Source of the DNA: Ideonella alba
GTDB lineage: Bacteria; Pseudomonadota; Gammaproteobacteria; Burkholderiales; Burkholderiaceae_C
Assembly (NCBI RefSeq): GCF_018069875.1
Contig: NZ_JAGQDF010000002.1
Span: 372,001 to 436,000 of the forward strand
Direction of reading: 5' to 3'
DNA: 64,000 nucleotides
The notes below the pieces were generated by a model. That model had not been told where the DNA came from and did not search any database. It saw nothing but the letters and a program-made list of their open reading frames with translations. The stretch's first letter is position 1. Each line of letters opens with the position of its first letter. This document shows positions 8,413 to 17,836 of the stretch, piece after piece. A program made the translations under genes and the position numbers.

Positions 8413-9816
8413 ATGGCTGACAAGTACCTCAGCGAGAAGGAATGGAAGAACACCAGCAAGGGCACGGCCTGGAAGGCCGAACCGCTGGCCAAGGCCCTGG
8501 CCGCCTTCGAGAAGGCCGACAAGTCCGGCCCCGAAGACGGACTCAAGGCGCTCGATGAGGTGCAGAAGCAGGCCGACCTGCTGGGCAAGTCGGCCAAGGG
8601 CGACAAGGTGCTGACCACCTGGCTGGGCAACCTGGACAAGTCGATCAGCAGCCAGCGCAAGGACTACGAGAAGGTGGTGGCCGAGGCCGCCAAGGCCGCG
8701 AAGAACGCCAAGGACGCCGCCAAGGGCGAGTCCGAGGACGACGAGGAGAACGCCGCGGCAGCGGTGCTGCTCGATCCCAAGCGCCTGCTGTCGCAGTTCC
8801 AGATGCTCAAGCGCGACCCGCAGCGGCGGGCGCAGTTCGCCTTTGTCGCCGCCAAGACCGAGTCGGGCTTCACGCTCAGTCCCAAGGTCGCGGGCCGCAA
8901 GCTGTTTGCCAAGCTGAGCGAGGCGCTGGAAAGCAAGGTCGGCACCTTTGGCGTGGCCTGGCTGGACGGCACCACGCTGGTGCTGCAGATCGACAAGGCC
9001 ATGGGTGGCGTCGTCAAGAAGGTGCGCGCACCGATCAAGGCCTGCGGCTTCCGCATCGCCAAGGTGGTGCTGTGGGACGCCGAGGGCAAGGTCCTCGAGG
9101 AAGACGTCGCCGACGAGAAGGACCTGCCGCCGCCGGAAGGCAGCTCATCGGACAACGCCTCCCCCCAGGAATCGCCCCGCAGCGAAGACCCGCAGAAGAC
9201 CCCCTACGAGCAGCGCCTGAAGGCGCTGGCCACCCCGCTGCAGCAGGCGCTCGACGGTGGCCATCCGGCGGCGGCCAAGCTGCGCGAGCTGCTCAACTTC
9301 GCCAAGGGCAAGGCCGACGGCGGCCAGTTCGGCGCCGGACTGCAGGCGCTGGAGGTGCTGGCCAAGCTGCTGGGTCAGGGCGGCGGCGAGGCGCCCGCCC
9401 CCACCCCCGCGACCGACGTGCCCAAGAAGGCCGATTACGCCCGCTGCGCCCAGGTCTGGACCGTCACCCGCACCCGCGTCAGCGACGACCTGAAGAAGCT
9501 GCGCGAGGCCATCCTCAGCGAGTTCGCCGCCAGCCCGCTGATCAACGAGATCAACGCGCGCATCGGCCGCCTGGACGAGGTGGCGCAGCGCTTCGATGAC
9601 CAGCTCGAGGCCGTGCTCAGCCAGGCCGGCGCCGCCGCCGACGAGGCCGAGCGTATCCGCCTGCACCGCCAGGCCGCGCAAAGCATCCAGCGCATGCTGT
9701 CGCAGCTCGACACCGACCCCGTCCTCTCGCGGCTGAAGGACAACCCCTTCGTGCCGATCGATCCGCGCGCCGCGCTGGGCGCCACGCTGCAGGTGCTGTC
9801 CAAGCAGGTGGCCTGA
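8413..9816 (+). CDS. uncharacterised helical protein A heading the zincin/CpXC cassette array
   Basis: A 467-residue protein I do not recognise. No signal peptide or membrane segment is visible, so it should be cytoplasmic. Residues 1-90 are helical and lysine/alanine-rich (opening MADKYLSEKEWKNTSKG). A charged low-complexity stretch follows (about 90-117, KDAAKGESEDDEEN), then a compact mixed region (about 117-235) and a Pro/Ser-rich linker (236-265). The carboxyl 200 residues are mainly amphipathic helix, with likely coiled coil at 370-440. A strong AGGAGG lies 8 bp before the ATG. It is the first gene of the run ending at 16115, and the next reading frame opens within 10 bp of its stop. 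It has one copy while its neighbours are triplicated, so it may be a shared component. Function unknown. Confidence 0.75.
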   Translation: MADKYLSEKEWKNTSKGTAWKAEPLAKALAAFEKADKSGPEDGLKALDEVQKQADLLGKSAKGDKVLTTWLGNLDKSISSQRKDYEKVVAEAAKAAKNAKDAAKGESEDDEENAAAAVLLDPKRLLSQFQMLKRDPQRRAQFAFVAAKTESGFTLSPKVAGRKLFAKLSEALESKVGTFGVAWLDGTTLVLQIDKAMGGVVKKVRAPIKACGFRIAKVVLWDAEGKVLEEDVADEKDLPPPEGSSSDNASPQESPRSEDPQKTPYEQRLKALATPLQQALDGGHPAAAKLRELLNFAKGKADGGQFGAGLQALEVLAKLLGQGGGEAPAPTPATDVPKKADYARCAQVWTVTRTRVSDDLKKLREAILSEFAASPLINEINARIGRLDEVAQRFDDQLEAVLSQAGAAADEAERIRLHRQAAQSIQRMLSQLDTDPVLSRLKDNPFVPIDPRAALGATLQVLSKQVA

Positions 9817-9826
9817 CGTGGCCTCC

Positions 9827-10204
9827 ATGCTGCGCCGGCGCCGTGCGCTGCTGCTGGCCCCCTGGCTGGTGGCTGCGGCCGCGGTCTCATCGAAGGAGAG
9901 TTCCCCCATGACCGACGACACCCGGGAGCCCGGCAAGAGCCCGCGTCCCAGCGACGCCACGCTGGCGCTCGAGCAGCATGTGATCGACCTGCGCTTCGAC
10001 CTGGGCGTGACCCTGAGCGGCCAGGCCGACCGCGATGTGGCCGCGCTGCTGGCGGTGCAGCAGCGCGCGCTGGGCCGGCTGGCCACGATCGCGCTGCAGC
10101 ATGCCCGCGATCCGGAGCTGCGCGCGCTGGCCCAGCGCATCGCCGACCAGACCGGCAGCCTCGAGGGATCGCTCAAGGACATCCAGGCGCGCCTGGCGCG
10201 TTGA
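9827..10204 (+). CDS. DUF305-like small protein B1 (cassette 1)
   Basis: A small helical protein, 125 residues from the ATG at 9827. The core (about 55-125) reads like the helical hairpin of DUF305 proteins: DVAALLAVQQRALGRLATIA, then DPELRALAQRI. However, the paired histidines expected of DUF305 in the first helix are absent (VQQ instead). The first 27 residues look like a signal peptide: arginines 3-6, then a hydrophobic alanine/leucine run. A second start at 9908, with AGGAG 9 bp upstream, would give a leaderless 98-residue form matching B2. It lies 41 bp before C1. Export and function are inferences; paralogues B2 and B3 are in this locus. Confidence 0.62.
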   Translation: MLRRRRALLLAPWLVAAAAVSSKESSPMTDDTREPGKSPRPSDATLALEQHVIDLRFDLGVTLSGQADRDVAALLAVQQRALGRLATIALQHARDPELRALAQRIADQTGSLEGSLKDIQARLAR

Positions 10205-10245
10205 TGTGCCCGCCGGCCAGCGTGCCGGCCTGAAAGGACCATGCG

Positions 10246-11466
10246 ATGGACAACGCACAAGCCAAGCTCGACTGGCTGTCCCAGGTGCTGGGCGTGGCCG
10301 CCGGGCAGGGGCCCGAGGAGAGTGGCAAGTTCAGCCTCTCAGGCTTCACCGACGCCATCGCCAACCTGGGCGACAAGGTGGTGGCGCACTTCCTGAGCGC
10401 CGAGGTGGAGGGCCTGAAGAAGCTGGGCCTGAACACCGATCGGCTGGCCCAGGACCAGGCGGCGCAGGAGAAGGCGCTGGCCGATGCCAAGGCCATCACC
10501 GACCCCGACAAGCGCGCCGCGGCGCTGGAGCGCGTCCGCCAGCGGCTCAGCGAGATCAAGGCCCACGCCAACGCCCTGGAGGCTGCCGCCAGGGAGGTGA
10601 TGGGCAAGTCCAAGGACGCCCCCACGCCGGCCCAGAAGTCGGCCATCTACAAGAAGGCGCTGGAAGACCGGTACGGTCTGACCATCACCGTGCCCGAGGG
10701 CATGACCAACACCCACTTCGACCGCGTCTACGACATGATGGGCACCGTGCCCAAGTCGCAGGCCAAGCACGACAAGCTGAAGATCCTGAACTACAACAGC
10801 TCGTCCGGCAGCGGCTCCTACAACCGCGGCCTGGGCCGCGTCACGATGGGTGACTTCGGCGACGCCTCCGGCACCGAGGACTACGTGGTCGACGGCACCA
10901 CCCACGCGGCCAATTCCTTCGACGTGACCACGCTGCACGAGCTGGGCCATGCGCTGGATGCCGAGCAGCAGATCATGCAGAACCACGGCAACAAGGCCGG
11001 CTGCGGCGGCTGGACCCGGCAGAGTGCGGCCTCCGTCGGCACCGCGCTGCTGGCCCACCTGAAGAAGACGGTGACGCTGTCCAAGCCGATCGCCGACGAC
11101 GCCTTGCGCACAGCCATCGACCAGGGCCTGACCGGCACCCAGGCGCCCAAGCCCGACGACGCCACCGACGAGGACTGGCAGAAGGTCATCGGCTACGTGC
11201 GCGCCCATTGCCTGACCATCATCGCGGCCGCCAAGCCGTGGTGGAAGGCACCGGTGGACGTCGATGGCACCGTCTATGTCGAGTCCTACTCGAACGACTG
11301 GTGGAGCTACCAGCTGGCTTCGCGTGCCGGCACACTCGTCAACAGCTACCAGTGGCGTGCGCCCGGCGAGTGGTTCGCCGAGGTCTACGCGATCAGCTGG
11401 CTCAAGCGCACCAAGCCGCCCGCGGCGGTGGACGCCAGCGTGGCCGCCTACATGTGGCAGGACTGA
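10246..11466 (+). CDS. putative zincin metalloprotease C1 (cassette 1)
   Basis: A 406-residue protein without signal peptide. Residues 7-17 carry KLDWLSQVLGV, shared by all three C paralogues. A helical, charged amino half (about 25-140) follows, then the conserved IYKKALEDRYGL (134-145) and FDRVYDMMGTVPKSQ (158-172). HELGHALD at 231-238 is a perfect HExxH zinc motif. Near the end, YQWRAPGEWFAEVYAI (368-383) supplies a glutamate (E375 or E379) suited to be the third zinc ligand. The layout resembles lethal-factor-like (ATLF/M34) zincins, where HExxH is followed far downstream by an (E)FFAE motif. Peptidase activity is inferred. The last 33 codons belong to the 793-bp duplication shared with C2. 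Confidence 0.72.
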   Translation: MDNAQAKLDWLSQVLGVAAGQGPEESGKFSLSGFTDAIANLGDKVVAHFLSAEVEGLKKLGLNTDRLAQDQAAQEKALADAKAITDPDKRAAALERVRQRLSEIKAHANALEAAAREVMGKSKDAPTPAQKSAIYKKALEDRYGLTITVPEGMTNTHFDRVYDMMGTVPKSQAKHDKLKILNYNSSSGSGSYNRGLGRVTMGDFGDASGTEDYVVDGTTHAANSFDVTTLHELGHALDAEQQIMQNHGNKAGCGGWTRQSAASVGTALLAHLKKTVTLSKPIADDALRTAIDQGLTGTQAPKPDDATDEDWQKVIGYVRAHCLTIIAAAKPWWKAPVDVDGTVYVESYSNDWWSYQLASRAGTLVNSYQWRAPGEWFAEVYAISWLKRTKPPAAVDASVAAYMWQD

Positions 11467-12160
11467 ACCAGGAGCCCCCCGATGTCGATCTTCCACCCGG
11501 TCCAGGCCATCTGCGGCCAATGCGGACACACCAACGAGGTGCAGCGCACCGCCAGCGTCAACGCCGACCGCCGCCCTGACCTGCGCGCCGCCATCCTCGA
11601 CGGCAGCTTCCAGCAGCAGGACTGCGCCCAGTGCGGCACCGTGCTGCGCATCCCCCCTCACCTGACCTACCTCGACATGGCCCGCAAGCAGTGGTTCATG
11701 ATCGACTCGGCCGAGCGCATCAACGGCTTCGAAGCGCTGGAGGACAGCGCCCGCCAGACCTGGGACCGTGCCTTCGGCAGCCGCGCCACGCCGCACGCCC
11801 GGCGCATGGGCGAGGGCATGACCAGCCGCCTGGTGCTGGGCTGGCCGGCGCTGCGCGAGAAGCTCATCGCCTTCGAGCTGGGCCTGGACGACGTGGCCCT
11901 GGAGATGTGCAAGCTGGGCGTGCTGCGTGACATGGACAGCCCGCCGCTGGCCGACCAGACCGAGCTGCGTCTGGTTCAGGGCAACGCCCAGGCGCTGGTG
12001 ATGGCCTGGCACGAGCTGGCCACCGAGCGCGTGCTCGAAGCCGTCGAGGTGCCGCGCAGCCGCTACGACGAGATCATCGACCACCCCGACGACTGGGCCG
12101 AGCTGCGCGCGCAGTTCGACGGCGCCCTGCTCATCGACTGGCGCCGGCTGATGTTCGCCA
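11368..12160 (+). repeat. 793-bp direct repeat, copy 1
   Basis: The sequence from the EWFAE codons of C1 through almost all of D1 recurs 2,293 bp downstream at 13661-14453. Reading both copies, I found a single difference (A at 12089, G at 14382; D to G in protein D). Identity stops abruptly at both ends while flanking paralogous sequence is clearly diverged. This indicates recent duplication or gene conversion. Confidence 0.92.
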
Positions 12161-12168
12161 CCGCCTGA
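11482..12168 (+). CDS. CpXC-domain protein D1 (cassette 1)
   Basis: A 228-residue protein opening with a two-knuckle zinc ribbon: CGQC (C11, C14) and CAQC (C48, C51). Between them is the pattern V-N-x(4)-P-x-L-R-x-x-I-L-D-G, and LDMARKQWFMID follows near residue 68. That order is the signature of CpXC-domain proteins, a widespread family without known activity. The remaining 130 residues are helical and not recognised. The gene starts 15 bp after C1, with AGGAG upstream. It differs from D2 by one internal residue and by the last few residues. Confidence 0.75.
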   Translation: MSIFHPVQAICGQCGHTNEVQRTASVNADRRPDLRAAILDGSFQQQDCAQCGTVLRIPPHLTYLDMARKQWFMIDSAERINGFEALEDSARQTWDRAFGSRATPHARRMGEGMTSRLVLGWPALREKLIAFELGLDDVALEMCKLGVLRDMDSPPLADQTELRLVQGNAQALVMAWHELATERVLEAVEVPRSRYDEIIDHPDDWAELRAQFDGALLIDWRRLMFATA

Positions 12169-12206
12169 CCCCCTGACACACCGATCCACGGCCGGAACCG
12201 ACCACC

Positions 12207-12506
12207 ATGACCTCTACGCCGAAGACCCCCAACAAGATCCCCCGTCCGCCGCAGTCGACGCTGGATTTGAAGACGCAGGCTGACCACCTGCGCCTCAAGC
12301 TCAGCGTGGCCTTCACCGGCCAGGCCGACCGCGACGTCGCAGCCGTCATGGCGGTGCAACTGGAGGCGCTGGCCGAGCTGGCCCGCATCGGCCAGACCCA
12401 TGCGACCGACGCTGAGCTGAAGGCACTGGTGCAGCGGGTGCAGCAGTCCAGCAGCACCGACGAGCAGCAGCTGCGCGCGCTCAAGCAGCGCCTGCCCAAG
12501 GCCTGA
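12207..12506 (+). CDS. DUF305-like small protein B2 (cassette 2)
   Basis: A 99-residue paralogue of B1 and B3. The shared core runs from about 25 to 95: LRLKLSVAFTGQADRDVAAV, then THATDAELKALVQRV. It begins with a Pro/Thr-rich stretch and, unlike B1 and B3, has no hydrophobic leader, so this copy should stay in the cytoplasm. The histidine pair of true DUF305 proteins is missing. The ATG is preceded by GGAACCGACCACC, the same spacing seen before the internal starts of B1 and B3. C2 begins 2 bp after its stop, indicating translational coupling of each B with its C. Confidence 0.62.
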   Translation: MTSTPKTPNKIPRPPQSTLDLKTQADHLRLKLSVAFTGQADRDVAAVMAVQLEALAELARIGQTHATDAELKALVQRVQQSSSTDEQQLRALKQRLPKA

Positions 12507-12508
12507 GC

Positions 12509-13759
12509 ATGGCCACGCAGGACACCAAACTCGCCTGGTTGCAGCAGGTCCTGGGGGTCGGTCAGGCCCAGGCATCCGGCAGCACCCCGGGCACCACCCG
12601 CCAGCCGGCCCGCAAGATCAGCGCGAGCGACTTCACCGAGGAGGTCACCAAGCAGGGGGACAAGGCTGCCGAGCACTTCCTGAGCGGCGAAGTCGCCGAG
12701 CTGAAGAAGCTGGGCCTGGACACGTCGCGTCTGCAGAAGGACCAGCAGTTCCAGCAGAAGGCCCTGAAGGCCGCGATGGCCCTGCCCGAGGGCGCCGAGC
12801 GCACCGCCGCCATGGAGCGCATCCGTCTGCGCCTGGAGGAACTGCAGGAGCATGCCGAGGCCCTGAAGACCGCCACCGAGGCCGTGATGGCCGGCGCCAA
12901 GGGCAAGCCCAGTGCCGCGCAGAAATCGGCCATCTACCAGAAGGCGCTGGAGGACCACTACGGCCTGGCCATCACGGTGCCGGCGGGCATGAGCAACACG
13001 CACTTCGACCGTGTGTTCGACATGATGGGCACGGTGCCCAAGTCGCAGGTCGAACACGGCAAGCTCAAGAAGCTCACCTATGACAAGACCGCCGACTGGA
13101 AGGGCAGCGGCGCCTACGGTGGCGCCGAGGTCCTGATGGGCGACTTCGGCCGCGCCAAGGGTGCTGAGAACTACGAGGTCGATGGCAAGGTGCTGCCGGC
13201 CAACTCCTTCGACGTCACCATGCTCCACGAGATGGGCCACGCGCTCGACGATGCCGAGGGCATCATGTCGGCCCATGGCGCACTGAGCGGTTGCGGCGGC
13301 TGGAAGTCCGAGACCAAGGCCAGCGTGGCCGCGGCCATGCTCGACCACTACAAGGCCACCGAGACCATGGGCGGCACGCTGGACGAGGCCGCGGTGCTGG
13401 CGGCCATCGACACCGCGCTGGACAGCGCCACGCCGGCTGCCCCGTCCGGCGTCGACCCCGATGACTGGAACGACCTGCTGGACTTCATCGTCCGCGTGGT
13501 CTATCCATCCACCGAGGACGCCGATCCCTGGTTCAACCCGGCGCCGGTGTCGCTGGGCGGGCGCTGCTACCTCGAGTCCTACACCGATGAATGGTGGAGC
13601 TTCGAGCACGCCGCGCGCGGCAAGACGCGGGTCAACGACTACCAGTGGCGCTCGCCGGCGGAGTGGTTCGCCGAGGTCTACGCGATCAGCTGGCTCAAGC
13701 GCACCAAGCCGCCCGCGGCGGTGGACGCCAGCGTGGCCGCCTACATGTGGCAGGACTGA
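12509..13759 (+). CDS. putative zincin metalloprotease C2 (cassette 2)
   Basis: A 416-residue paralogue of C1 and C3. It has the amino-terminal KLAWLQQVLGV (7-17), a charged helical region to about 145, FDRVFDMMGTVPKSQ (166-180), HEMGHALDD (240-248) as HExxH, a GCGGW element about 25 residues further on, YLESYTDEWWSF, and finally EWFAEVYAI starting at 385. The amino two-thirds is clearly diverged from C1 at DNA level, but the last 33 codons are identical, marking the edge of the duplication. No signal peptide or membrane segment is visible. The substrate is unknown; a soluble intracellular protease or effector is the most that can be proposed. Confidence 0.72.
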   Translation: MATQDTKLAWLQQVLGVGQAQASGSTPGTTRQPARKISASDFTEEVTKQGDKAAEHFLSGEVAELKKLGLDTSRLQKDQQFQQKALKAAMALPEGAERTAAMERIRLRLEELQEHAEALKTATEAVMAGAKGKPSAAQKSAIYQKALEDHYGLAITVPAGMSNTHFDRVFDMMGTVPKSQVEHGKLKKLTYDKTADWKGSGAYGGAEVLMGDFGRAKGAENYEVDGKVLPANSFDVTMLHEMGHALDDAEGIMSAHGALSGCGGWKSETKASVAAAMLDHYKATETMGGTLDEAAVLAAIDTALDSATPAAPSGVDPDDWNDLLDFIVRVVYPSTEDADPWFNPAPVSLGGRCYLESYTDEWWSFEHAARGKTRVNDYQWRSPAEWFAEVYAISWLKRTKPPAAVDASVAAYMWQD

Positions 13760-14453
13760 ACCAGGAGCCCCCCGATGTCGATCTTCCACCCGGTCCAGGC
13801 CATCTGCGGCCAATGCGGACACACCAACGAGGTGCAGCGCACCGCCAGCGTCAACGCCGACCGCCGCCCTGACCTGCGCGCCGCCATCCTCGACGGCAGC
13901 TTCCAGCAGCAGGACTGCGCCCAGTGCGGCACCGTGCTGCGCATCCCCCCTCACCTGACCTACCTCGACATGGCCCGCAAGCAGTGGTTCATGATCGACT
14001 CGGCCGAGCGCATCAACGGCTTCGAAGCGCTGGAGGACAGCGCCCGCCAGACCTGGGACCGTGCCTTCGGCAGCCGCGCCACGCCGCACGCCCGGCGCAT
14101 GGGCGAGGGCATGACCAGCCGCCTGGTGCTGGGCTGGCCGGCGCTGCGCGAGAAGCTCATCGCCTTCGAGCTGGGCCTGGACGACGTGGCCCTGGAGATG
14201 TGCAAGCTGGGCGTGCTGCGTGACATGGACAGCCCGCCGCTGGCCGACCAGACCGAGCTGCGTCTGGTTCAGGGCAACGCCCAGGCGCTGGTGATGGCCT
14301 GGCACGAGCTGGCCACCGAGCGCGTGCTCGAAGCCGTCGAGGTGCCGCGCAGCCGCTACGACGAGATCATCGACCACCCCGGCGACTGGGCCGAGCTGCG
14401 CGCGCAGTTCGACGGCGCCCTGCTCATCGACTGGCGCCGGCTGATGTTCGCCA
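13661..14453 (+). repeat. 793-bp direct repeat, copy 2
   Basis: The second copy of the 11368-12160 segment, covering the last 33 codons of C2, the C2-D2 gap and nearly all of D2. The offset is 2,293 bp, one full cassette length. Confidence 0.92.
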
Positions 14454-14467
14454 GCGCGCAGGCCTGA
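13775..14467 (+). CDS. CpXC-domain protein D2 (cassette 2)
   Basis: A 230-residue near-identical twin of D1, with cysteine pairs C11/C14 and C48/C51. It has G in place of D1's second aspartate in HPDDW, and ends in SAQA instead of TA. The upstream gap and AGGAG match D1 exactly because they lie inside the duplication. The TGA overlaps the ATG of B3 (TGATG), so translation of cassette 3 is probably coupled to it. The function of CpXC proteins is not known. Confidence 0.75.
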   Translation: MSIFHPVQAICGQCGHTNEVQRTASVNADRRPDLRAAILDGSFQQQDCAQCGTVLRIPPHLTYLDMARKQWFMIDSAERINGFEALEDSARQTWDRAFGSRATPHARRMGEGMTSRLVLGWPALREKLIAFELGLDDVALEMCKLGVLRDMDSPPLADQTELRLVQGNAQALVMAWHELATERVLEAVEVPRSRYDEIIDHPGDWAELRAQFDGALLIDWRRLMFASAQA

Positions 14468-14880
14468 TGCGCACGCCCATCACCCGCCGCCGCCTGGCCG
14501 GGCTGACGGCTGTCGGCATGACCTGGCTGGCCGGTGCGCGTGCCGGCCTGGCCGCCACTTCGGAGAACGCCCCCATGGGACTGCTGTCCAAGGGCCCGGG
14601 CAAGCGCCCCGAGCCGCCGCAAGCCACGCTGGACCTGAACACCCACGTCGACCAGTTGCGCCTGCAGCTGAGCATCGCCTTCACCCAGGACCCCGACGCG
14701 GACGTGGCCGCGCTGCTGGCGGTGCAACTGGCCGCACTGGGCCGACTGGCCCGCATTGGCCTGACGCATGGCCGCGACGCCGAACTGCGCTTGCTGTGCC
14801 AGCGCGTGGCCGATGCCTGCGACGCCGAGTCGACCACGCTGCAGGGCTGGCAGAAGGCCCGGCGTGGAGGTGCCTCATGA
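14467..14880 (+). CDS. DUF305-like small protein B3 (cassette 3)
   Basis: A 137-residue paralogue of B1 and B2. The leader (residues 1-30) has RRR at 7-9 followed by a hydrophobic run ending RAGLAA, resembling a Tat or Sec signal. The core (about 50-130) has LRLQLSIAFTQDPDADVAAL and THGRDAELRLLCQRV. As in B1, an internal ATG (14575) preceded by GGAG at 9-bp spacing would give a leaderless form. It overlaps D2 upstream (TGATG) and C3 downstream (ATGA), so D2, B3 and C3 are tightly coupled. The DUF305 relationship is my reading of the helix pattern and needs a profile search. Confidence 0.62.
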   Translation: MRTPITRRRLAGLTAVGMTWLAGARAGLAATSENAPMGLLSKGPGKRPEPPQATLDLNTHVDQLRLQLSIAFTQDPDADVAALLAVQLAALGRLARIGLTHGRDAELRLLCQRVADACDAESTTLQGWQKARRGGAS

Positions 14881-16115
14881 GCCAGGAACTGAAGCTGGCC
14901 TGGCTGCAGGAGGTGCTGGGCGTGGGCGCCGACGAGGACGACACCCCTCCCGAATCCGGCAAGGCGCGCAAGAACGCCTTCACCGAGGCCCTGTCCTCGG
15001 CCGAGAACAAGCTGATGCGCCTGTTCTCCACCACCAAGACGCTGACCGACGGCGATACCGGCCTGGACACCACGCGCATCAAGGACGACCTGGCCTACCA
15101 GCGCAAGGCACTGGAGAATGCCGCATCGATCACCGACGAGGGAGAACGGCAGGCGGCGATCGAGCGCATCAACCGCCGCATCGATGAAATCCAGGCCCAT
15201 GCCAACGCCCTGGAGACCGCGCGCAAGGCGGTGATGGGCGACAGCAAGAAGGCCCCCACCGACGCCCAGAAGAACAAGATCTACCAGCAGGCCCTGGAGG
15301 ACTTCTACGGCCTGAAGCTCTCGGTGCCGCTGCTGATGAGCAACACCCACCTCGACCGGGTCTTCGACATGATGGGCACCGTGCCCAAGGGTCAGACCGG
15401 CCACGACAAGCTCAAGAAGCTGGAGTACACCCGCGACAAGGGCTGGAAGGGCAGCGGTGCCTACGGCGGCGGCGAGATCCTGATGGGCGACTTCGGCGAC
15501 GCCACCGGCGAAGAGACCTACACCGTGGACGGCAAGGCTCTGCCGGCCAACTCCTTCGACGTCACCATGCTGCACGAGATGGGCCATGCGCTGGACGACG
15601 AGAAGAAGATCATGGACCGCTTCCAGGGCCTGGACGGCTGCGGCGGCTGGGTCAAGGAGAGCCTGGCTTCGGTGGTGGCGGCCATGCTCAAGGAGTTCAA
15701 GGGCTCTGGGCCGGCGGGCGCCACGCTGAGCGATGCGGTGGTCGAGAGCGCCATCAAGCAGGTGCTCAAGGGCAGCACCTCGCTGGCGGTGCCGCAGGGG
15801 GTCGACGCCACTGAGTGGAACGCCCTGCTGTCGGGCTTTCTGTCTCCCACGGTCCGGCCGTCCTGCGAGGCCGCCGAGCCCTGGTTCAACCCGCCGCCGG
15901 CGCTGGCCGACGGCCGCTGCTACATCGAGTCCTACAGCAACGACTGGTGGAGCTACCGGCACGCCAGTGTCGCTGCCACCAAGGTCAACAAGTACCAGTG
16001 GCGCTCGCCGGCCGAATGGTTTGCCGAGGTCTACGCCATCACCTGGCTCAAGCGCAACAACCCGCCCACCGGCGTGGCCAAGGAAGTCACCGAGTTCATG
16101 TTCAAGGAGGCTTGA
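14877..16115 (+). CDS. putative zincin metalloprotease C3 (cassette 3)
   Basis: A 412-residue paralogue of C1 and C2. It has KLAWLQEVLGV (6-16), a charged helical region, LDRVFDMMGTVPKGQ (about 159-173), HEMGHALDD (233-241), GCGGW, YIESYSNDWWSY, and EWFAEVYAITWLKR beginning at 380. The start is the ATG inside the ATGA overlap with B3; in-frame sequence upstream is shadow of B3. Its last 30 residues differ from C1 and C2, so it was not part of the recent duplication. No D gene follows: the next gene is on the other strand 21 bp away, leaving cassette 3 without a CpXC partner. Confidence 0.72.
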   Translation: MSQELKLAWLQEVLGVGADEDDTPPESGKARKNAFTEALSSAENKLMRLFSTTKTLTDGDTGLDTTRIKDDLAYQRKALENAASITDEGERQAAIERINRRIDEIQAHANALETARKAVMGDSKKAPTDAQKNKIYQQALEDFYGLKLSVPLLMSNTHLDRVFDMMGTVPKGQTGHDKLKKLEYTRDKGWKGSGAYGGGEILMGDFGDATGEETYTVDGKALPANSFDVTMLHEMGHALDDEKKIMDRFQGLDGCGGWVKESLASVVAAMLKEFKGSGPAGATLSDAVVESAIKQVLKGSTSLAVPQGVDATEWNALLSGFLSPTVRPSCEAAEPWFNPPPALADGRCYIESYSNDWWSYRHASVAATKVNKYQWRSPAEWFAEVYAITWLKRNNPPTGVAKEVTEFMFKEA

Positions 16116-17445: not shown

Positions 17446-17521
17446 TGGTGGGCCCTGTAGGATTCGAACCTACGACCAACGGATTAAGAGTCCGCTGCTC
17501 TACCAACTGAGCTAAGAGCCC
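17446..17521 (-). tRNA. tRNA-Lys (anticodon CTT), copy 3 in transcription order
   Basis: A 76-nt gene on the minus strand including the encoded CCA (17446-17448). The acceptor stem starts GGGCTCT, the anticodon loop is CTCTTAA and the T-loop is GGTTCGAATCC. Identical to the two other CTT copies. Confidence 0.97.
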
Positions 17522-17564
17522 GTCATCGCTGACGGCGGCGGCCCGCAGGCAGCCTCTGAATTCT

Positions 17565-17640
17565 TGGTGGGCCCTGTAGGATTCGAACCTACGACCAACG
17601 GATTAAGAGTCCGCTGCTCTACCAACTGAGCTAAGAGCCC
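17565..17640 (-). tRNA. tRNA-Lys (anticodon CTT), copy 2
   Basis: A 76-nt gene with encoded CCA, identical in sequence to the genes at 17446 and 17642. It is separated from the preceding copy (in transcription) by a single nucleotide and from the next by 43 nt. Confidence 0.97.
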
Positions 17641-17641
17641 G

Positions 17642-17717
17642 TGGTGGGCCCTGTAGGATTCGAACCTACGACCAACGGATTAAGAGTCCGCTGCTCTACC
17701 AACTGAGCTAAGAGCCC
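17642..17717 (-). tRNA. tRNA-Lys (anticodon CTT), copy 1
   Basis: A 76-nt gene with anticodon loop CTCTTAA and encoded CCA. Its 3' end is one base from the 5' end of the next tRNA at 17640. Confidence 0.97.
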
Positions 17718-17760
17718 GCTCGTATCGCCTGGCACCGGCACGAAGGCCAGCGCTGGGCAG

Positions 17761-17836
17761 TGGTGGGTTGTGCAGGATTCGAACCTGCGACCAACGGATT
17801 AAAAGTCCGCTGCTCTACCGACTGAGCTAACAACCC
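17761..17836 (-). tRNA. tRNA-Lys (anticodon TTT)
   Basis: A 76-nt gene with acceptor stem GGGTTGT, anticodon loop CTTTTAA and encoded CCA. It is the first gene of the four-tRNA operon in transcription order and decodes AAA/AAG, complementing the three CTT copies. Confidence 0.97.

What the first reader, a model, noticed from the sequence alone, without database searches (positions are those of the whole stretch)
8413..16115. Tandem zincin / DUF305-like / CpXC cassettes headed by an unknown helical protein
One apparent operon reads A-(B1 C1 D1)-(B2 C2 D2)-(B3 C3). Each C has a perfect HExxH with a downstream EWFAE, each B is a small helical DUF305-like protein, and each D is a CpXC zinc-ribbon protein. 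Gaps of 2-41 bp and stop/start overlaps couple the units. I know of no named system with this composition. Iterated units of a protease plus a small partner recall effector/immunity or protease/inhibitor arrays, but here the partner precedes the protease and A is single-copy. No secretion genes are in the window.
Basis: partly seen in the sequence, partly recalled or inferred. Interest (0 to 1): 0.78.

Follow-up and report, generated by a model that had tools for sequence, protein, structure and literature searches.

The report
Tandem protease-effector array for T6SS
Three related protease genes, each with small partner genes, look like injected weapons of a bacterial type VI secretion system encoded elsewhere in the same genome, and their leader gene belongs to a family, apparently undescribed, that accompanies several different effectors of this machine.

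Summary
The genes exist as described: A, B1-C1-D1, B2-C2-D2, B3-C3. No T6SS marker lies in the window, but the genome has one TssK, on another contig, with a second A-C-D unit 16 kb from it. C is a divergent zincin: HExxH plus a distal helix with conserved Glu, model pLDDT 90, no PDB fold match. C and D are a near-obligate pair: 89 of 92 CpXC matches in 54 C-bearing genomes lie just downstream of a C; six of six plasmids agree. 45 of 54 C genomes have TssK. The middle domain of A is fused to C in many Rhodobacterales, follows T6SS in two panels (6/6 vs 55/199; 16/17 vs 46/198) and adjoins patatin, CdiA_C, kinase-like and FAD-enzyme genes. Best reading: three T6SS protease effectors sharing one adaptor-like leader; D probably immunity (about 0.55, inferred), B an exported accessory.

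The parts
8413..9816 (+). A, 467 aa: N-terminal helices, middle alpha/beta 'A-domain' (about residues 128-235), C-terminal helical module (about 344-466)
9818..10204 (+). B1: small protein; GTG start gives an arginine-rich signal-like N-terminus, alternative ATG start at 9908
10246..11466 (+). C1, 406 aa zincin (HExxH) effector candidate with N-terminal LxWLxxVLGV motif
11482..12168 (+). D1, 228 aa CpXC protein
   Evidence: PF14353 over cut-off
12207..12506 (+). B2, 99 aa small protein without a signal-like N-terminus
12509..13759 (+). C2, 416 aa zincin (HExxH) effector candidate; structure modelled
13775..14467 (+). D2, 230 aa CpXC protein, 99.1% identical to D1
14467..14880 (+). B3, 137 aa, signal-like N-terminus; alternative ATG start at 14575
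14877..16115 (+). C3, 412 aa zincin (HExxH) effector candidate, without a D gene
11368..12160 (.). block repeated at 13661-14453 with one mismatch: recent duplication or gene conversion of C tail and D
13661..14453 (.). second copy of the 793-bp block

Best explanation
An orphan effector array of the one T6SS detected in this genome. C1-C3 are cargo effectors: a short N-terminal helix motif and helical region followed by a zinc metalloprotease toxin domain. A is a shared companion (adaptor or loading protein) that couples them to the T6SS; relatives carry its middle domain fused to the effector or in a neighbouring gene. D, made right after C, is the near-obligate partner of the zincin domain and most likely its immunity protein, so that the producer survives while rivals are attacked. 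B is an exported accessory, possibly periplasmic protection. Shown: gene order, C-D pairing, fusion of the A-domain to C, T6SS co-occurrence, a zincin-type model. Inferred: secretion, proteolysis, adaptor role of A, immunity by D, role of B.
For: T6SS: 45 of 54 C-bearing genomes have TssK; all 4 C-bearing genomes of the 199-genome relatives panel (own genome included) have it, against 55 of 199 overall (P 0.005). A: middle domain in 6 of 199 relatives, 6 of 6 TssK+, and in 17 of 198 genomes of a second family, 16 of 17 TssK+ against 46 of 198 (P 3.6e-4 and 1e-10); within 2-4 kb of a TssC-profile match in L091, L110, L111 and L112; fused to the N-terminus of C in 18 of 75 C rows; next to patatin (two loci), CdiA_C, PI3/4-kinase-like, FAD-enzyme and DUF4135 genes. 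C: invariant HExxH and distal Glu, zincin-like order of elements; the same toxin domain is fused to eCIS_core in L081 and L083. D: 89 of 92 CpXC matches within 1 kb downstream of C, 0 of 195 relatives without C, the same six of 72,556 plasmids.
Against: The window lies on a different contig from the T6SS. C3 lacks D, 7 of 96 C genes have no D, and G045 has C with no CpXC match at all. D is no more variable than C (median identity 42.4 against 39.9 over 1711 comparisons of 59 C-D couples), unlike many immunity proteins, and no CpXC gene without C was seen in relatives. 9 of 54 C genomes show no TssK; 7 of the 9 are MAGs, 2 are isolates (titles), and one of them holds L016, the closest relative of the window's C and the only other B-C-D unit, which also lacks an A-type companion in its short contig. 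31 of 75 C rows have no A-type companion in the stretch fetched. No significant match to a known peptidase family or fold.
Confidence: 0.7

Rival explanations
1. C is a T6SS effector aimed at eukaryotic predators or hosts, and D (and B) are chaperone or zinc-maturation factors of the protease rather than immunity proteins.
For: D is conserved (39-50% identity to D1 in nine others from several phyla) and was not seen without C in relatives; the two zincin-type RIX effectors in a published table (LF-like and M34) are listed as anti-eukaryotic without immunity gene (PMC10435454 section 7), and PVC-delivered toxins are said to lack immunity genes (PMC3482391 passages); D1 and D2 are homogenised although C1 and C2 are 51% identical outside the shared tail.
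Against: D follows C directly as immunity genes do and is found with the zincin domain behind different N-terminal domains, e.g. L065 with LysM; D-less C genes exist (7 of 96) and at least one CpXC match far from any C (G247).
Confidence: 0.25
2. B is the true cognate immunity protein (periplasmic), D only a cytosolic helper.
For: Each C in the window has its own B directly upstream; B pairs differ (45-53% identity) about as much as C pairs (51-55%), while D1 and D2 are 99% identical; L016 B has a signal peptide by eye, and B1 and B3 have arginine-rich signal-like N-termini.
Against: B was found only in the window, in L016 and as a remnant in G014; B2 has no signal-like N-terminus; 55 of 57 loci with D have no B.
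Confidence: 0.12
3. The cassettes are a cytosolic stress, regulatory or phage-defence protease system, unrelated to secretion.
For: No T6SS marker in the window; no classical signal peptide seen on C.
Against: Best PADLOC match E 0.018; T6SS association of A and C; fusion of the same toxin domain to eCIS_core; no phage record holds C.
Confidence: 0.06
4. The array is a decaying remnant kept by chance.
For: The syntenic locus of congener G014 lost everything between B1 and the last codons of C3; C3 lacks D.
Against: All nine ORFs are open, the HExxH and EWFAE residues are intact in all three C, and D is kept in two copies.
Confidence: 0.05

Closest known systems
RIX class of T6SS polymorphic effectors and secreted adaptors (PMC10435454; section 7 and passages read)
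   Same: A short N-terminal domain shared by many toxins; stand-alone carriers act as secreted adaptors encoded first in an adaptor-effector-immunity operon; 97.7% of carrier genomes have T6SS.
   Different: RIX is an arginine-rich 55-residue motif reported only from Vibrionaceae and Moritellaceae; A is a 467-aa three-part protein with relatives in Burkholderiales, Rhodobacterales and others. No direct profile comparison was made.
WHIX and MIX T6SS effector domains (PMC12135965 passages; PMC10673891 abstract and outline)
   Same: Delivery domains that are fused to toxins or (MIX) stand-alone.
   Different: A and C of the window have no Pfam match to a T6SS delivery domain; no direct profile comparison with MIX or WHIX was made.
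Zincin toxin domains of polymorphic toxins and contractile injection systems, incl. lethal-factor-like and Tox-MPTase1-5 (PMC3482391 passages)
   Same: HExxH metallopeptidase as C-terminal toxin domain; some carry a PVC/eCIS delivery domain, as L081 and L083 do here.
   Different: Only sub-threshold sequence matches to M34 members (E 0.42 and 0.79) and no fold match; this clade is paired with a CpXC gene.
CpXC family PF14353
   Same: D1 and D2 are members by Pfam's own cut-off.
   Different: Pfam's description gives no function; here the family is tied to the zincin, and D has about 84 residues beyond the matched stretch.

Membership tests
T6SS cargo effector module | found in T6SS-bearing genomes or T6SS loci | tested here: met
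   45 of 54 C genomes TssK+; own second unit 16 kb from TssK; 4 of 4 relatives against 55 of 199
T6SS cargo effector module | T6SS-dependent export | not testable with these tools
   needs secretion assay
T6SS cargo effector module | adjacent cognate immunity gene | tested here: inconclusive
   adjacency met for 89 of 96 C; inhibition not testable; D is not faster-evolving than C
RIX/MIX/FIX/WHIX effector classes | recognisable class domain | tested here: inconclusive
   no such Pfam match to A or C of the window or to the relatives scanned (L081 and L032 match another one, T6SS_Tse3_N); whether the library holds each of these domains was not checked
M34 / ATLF-like metallopeptidase | HExxH and a Glu on a later helix | tested here: met
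   this is common to gluzincins and not specific (recalled)
M34 / ATLF-like metallopeptidase | significant sequence or fold match to the family | tested here: not met
   Pfam none; PDB profile E 0.42 and 0.79; Foldseek none at E 0.001
CpXC (PF14353) | score above Pfam gathering cut-off | tested here: met
   74.8 against 25.4 bits for D1 and D2
DUF305 / CopM | score above family cut-off | tested here: not met
   DUF305 14.3 against 27 bits; CopM 28.7 against 90 bits at best
eCIS effector | eCIS_core (PF13699) delivery domain | tested here: not met
   absent from C1-C3, present in relatives L081 and L083
Known anti-phage defence systems (PADLOC) | match to a PADLOC model | tested here: not met
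   8 proteins scanned, one hit, E 0.018

The most novel reading that the evidence does not exclude
The A middle domain plus its C-terminal helical module define an undescribed class of T6SS companions, found from Burkholderiales to Rhodobacterales and other groups, that goes with unrelated cargo toxins (zincin, patatin, CdiA_C, kinase-like, FAD enzyme) either as a fused N-terminus or as a neighbouring gene, usually the first of the operon; the window is a tandem array in which one such leader serves three zincin effectors guarded by CpXC immunity proteins, which would be a first role for CpXC.
Probability: 0.55. Interest if true: 0.8.

Novelty: new variant of a known kind. Interest (0 to 1): 0.7.

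Why it matters
It gives a candidate function to CpXC proteins (PF14353, no function in the Pfam description seen here), adds a divergent zincin clade as an injected effector, and points to a companion family by which unannotated T6SS effectors in environmental Burkholderiales and Rhodobacterales could be found. It also makes testable how one leader gene could serve several cargo effectors.

Tried and rejected
Considered and rejected or left: (1) DUF305/DUF4142/CopM as the identity of B: below cut-offs. (2) Anti-phage defence: one PADLOC hit, E 0.018; phage records: no match. (3) M34 membership: only sub-threshold, no fold match; the viral structure library gave nothing at E 0.001. (4) Fold search with the A model: nothing at E 0.001; its whole-chain pTM is only 0.36, so the arrangement of its parts is unsure. 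(5) My first iterated profile of whole A drifted into helical repeats (100 matches in round 3; its 'A' labels on C proteins are not used) and was replaced by the domain alignment A5. (6) Promoter/terminator scan: uninformative. (7) PDB profile searches for D and for the A-domain: nothing below E 0.4. (8) Paper searches, listings only: 'CpXC protein' one unrelated paper; CpXC with T6SS one preprint; 'CpXC domain-containing' none; CpXC with metalloprotease and operon two; zincin with type VI secretion and immunity eight; twelve. In those searches no paper on this pairing was found. Gene calls in fetched loci come from my own simple caller, and some starts are wrong. Labels TssM, TssL, VgrG, tssA and tssB in fetched loci are recalled from sequence, not from a family search; TssK, TssC and the VipB-like fusion are from Pfam.
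Full report
OBSERVATION. A ends at 9816; B1 starts at 9818 (GTG) or 9908 (ATG); B1-C1 are 41 bp apart, C1-D1 15, D1-B2 38, B2-C2 2, C2-D2 15; D2/B3 and B3/C3 overlap. No consensus promoter was found between 7900 and 16400, and the only terminator-like site lies upstream of A (a weak test). D1 and D2 are CpXC proteins by Pfam's cut-off. A, B and C have no match above a curated cut-off in Pfam or NCBIfam; their best matches in PADLOC and PHROGs are E 0.018 and 0.028.

HOW THE ARRAY AROSE. In a tree of 71 zincin domains the three window C proteins form one clade (100/96), C2 and C3 closest (100/97), with the metagenome gene L016 as sister (99/87); the other C gene of the same genome (L009) falls elsewhere (L013, L015 as duplicates and L083, L084 were left out). 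So the array most simply grew by tandem duplication. A 793-bp block (11368-12160 and 13661-14453) is identical but for one base and covers the C tail and nearly all of D: D1 and D2 are 99.1% identical, C1 and C2 only 50.8% outside the last 36 residues. B pairs are 45-53% identical. In congener G014 the same chromosomal place keeps A and the start of B1, which runs straight into the last codons of C3, as read from the alignment: the array was lost by an internal deletion.

C IS A DIVERGENT ZINCIN. In 47 aligned sequences the invariant residues include H240, E241, H244, W265, Y378, Q379, R381, P383, E385 and Y391 (C2 numbering; the most divergent relatives were not in that set, and L084 lacks the EWFAE end). 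The C2 model (pLDDT 90.0, pTM 0.86) has a group of strands, a helix 234-250 with HExxH, and a later helix 383-397 with E385 and E389, the order of elements expected of a zincin; metal geometry was not measured. Foldseek finds no PDB or BFVD match at E 0.001; the best PDB row, a PepO endopeptidase, has E 0.78. Profile searches of the PDB touch two M34-type chains far below significance (E 0.79 and 0.42).

C AND D ARE A PAIR. A genome-collection scan returned 69 loci, a lower bound. In the 54 genomes then examined (G000, G014, G045, G077 and those of 50 of the 69 loci), profile A1 gave 106 matches, 96 genes after merging fragments; PF14353 gave 92. 89 of the 92 CpXC matches lie downstream of a C match on the same strand within 1 kb (85 within 230 bp of the domain match), and 89 of the 96 C genes have a D. 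The seven C without D include window C3; the three CpXC matches without C within 1 kb are in G221 (below cut-off), G239 (a C fragment lies 1.6 kb off) and G247. In the relatives panel (199 genomes, own included) CpXC occurs in 3 genomes, all among the 4 with C (P 3e-6). In 72,556 plasmid records C and D, searched separately, occur in the same six, D directly downstream. D is also found behind a LysM-bearing C in L065, there with one gene between. C-domain and D identities correlate at 0.85 over 1711 comparisons of 59 couples; D is slightly more conserved (medians 42.4 and 39.9).

THE T6SS LINK. The own genome has one TssK match, on contig C9, with a second A-C-D unit 16 kb away, a TssC and a further VipB-like gene; genes I read as TssM, TssL and VgrG lie there too (my labels). 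C units with an A-type gene lie within 6-16 kb of TssK also in G014, G045 and G077. Of 54 C genomes 45 have TssK; the nine without are G199, G201, G202, G214, G224, G228, G242, G247 and G248, seven of them MAGs by title. Background: 55 of 199 relatives.

A IS A T6SS-LINKED COMPANION. The middle domain of A matches the N-terminus of the long C proteins of Rhodobacterales (hhalign probability 96.9, E 2e-10, 116 columns at 16% identity). Of 75 C rows (two genes were fetched twice) 18 carry it fused (17 Rhodobacterales, one Gemmataceae), 13 have a companion gene directly upstream, 13 have one elsewhere in the stretch fetched, and 31 show none. A second module, the last 125 residues of A, recurs in many A-domain proteins and also in companions without the middle domain in L017, L018, L019, L020, L021 and L039. 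The middle domain occurs 130 times in 45 of the 54 genomes, mostly not near C (36 of 130 near C, slightly low because of the incomplete C list); 19 genomes have one within 40 kb of TssK, against about two matches expected by a rough estimate. In relatives 6 of 199 genomes have it, all TssK+ (P 3.6e-4); in the family of G225 17 of 198, of which 16 TssK+, against 46 of 198 overall (P 1e-10; the profile includes sequences of this group). In L091, L110, L111 and L112 (Rhodobacterales) it sits 2-4 kb from a TssC-profile match, next to a gene I read as tssA. Genes next to A-domain genes encode patatin (two loci), DUF4135, a CdiA_C toxin, a PI3/4-kinase-like protein and an FAD enzyme; the A-type gene usually comes first, but it is last in L088, L013 and L061. 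Of 17 neighbours or A-type proteins scanned, nine had no match above cut-off.

N-TERMINAL MOTIF. C1-C3 begin with LxWLxxVLGV. A profile of 16 C N-termini found, outside the training set and its near-copies, small proteins in L019 (E 4.9e-5), L021 (1e-4) and L041 (0.0059) and the patatin protein of L088 (0.015); the FAD enzyme of L100 (0.19) and a 1070-aa gene in L013/L061 (0.73) lie in or near the noise, the best reversed control being 0.69. It is a candidate loading signal, weakly supported.

B AND E. L016 B has a signal peptide by eye; B1 and B3 have arginine-rich, hydrophobic N-termini when read from the start codons nearest the gene before. In the C9 unit a different gene with a similar N-terminus, E, follows D. 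No signal-peptide program was run. Their role is open.

MECHANISM AND STATUS. Most likely the T6SS loads C with the help of A and injects it, the zincin cleaves proteins of rival cells, and D neutralises C inside the producer. Co-occurrence, fusion and pairing are shown; export, cleavage, loading and inhibition are inferred. D as immunity I put at about 0.55, as chaperone or maturation factor at about 0.3. Operons with a stand-alone delivery protein first, effector second and immunity third are described for RIX (PMC10435454), so the logic is known; the domains, their distribution, the CpXC partner and the triple array appear new as far as the searches made here go.

Noticed in passing
window 17446-17836 (-): Four tRNA-Lys genes in tandem, three CTT and one TTT.
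   Followed up: no
L090 (G014 C58): Syntenic locus of a congener in which the B-C-D array is deleted from within B1 to the last codons of C3, with A open.
   Followed up: yes
L009:16079-17869 (own genome C9): A second VipB-like protein (596 aa; VipB E 1.1e-40, VipA just below cut-off) apart from the main TssC at C9:46088: an unexplained sheath-like fusion.
   Followed up: partly
L085, L086, L087 (own genome C31, C34, C11): Three further A-domain genes, next to a DUF4135 protein, next to a patatin protein, or as part of a 1493-aa protein: possibly more T6SS effector loci.
   Followed up: partly
L114, L115, L100: A-domain genes beside proteins with CdiA_C, PI3/4-kinase and FAD-binding matches.
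   Followed up: partly
L065, L081, L032: In these loci a 174-189 aa gene directly follows C; in L065 it lies between C and D.
   Followed up: no
L081, L083: The zincin domain is fused to eCIS_core (PF13699), so the same toxin domain seems to be used by extracellular injection systems.
   Followed up: partly
six plasmid records of Leisingera, Phaeobacter and a Hyphomicrobiales bacterium: C-D pairs on plasmids typed non-mobilizable.
   Followed up: no
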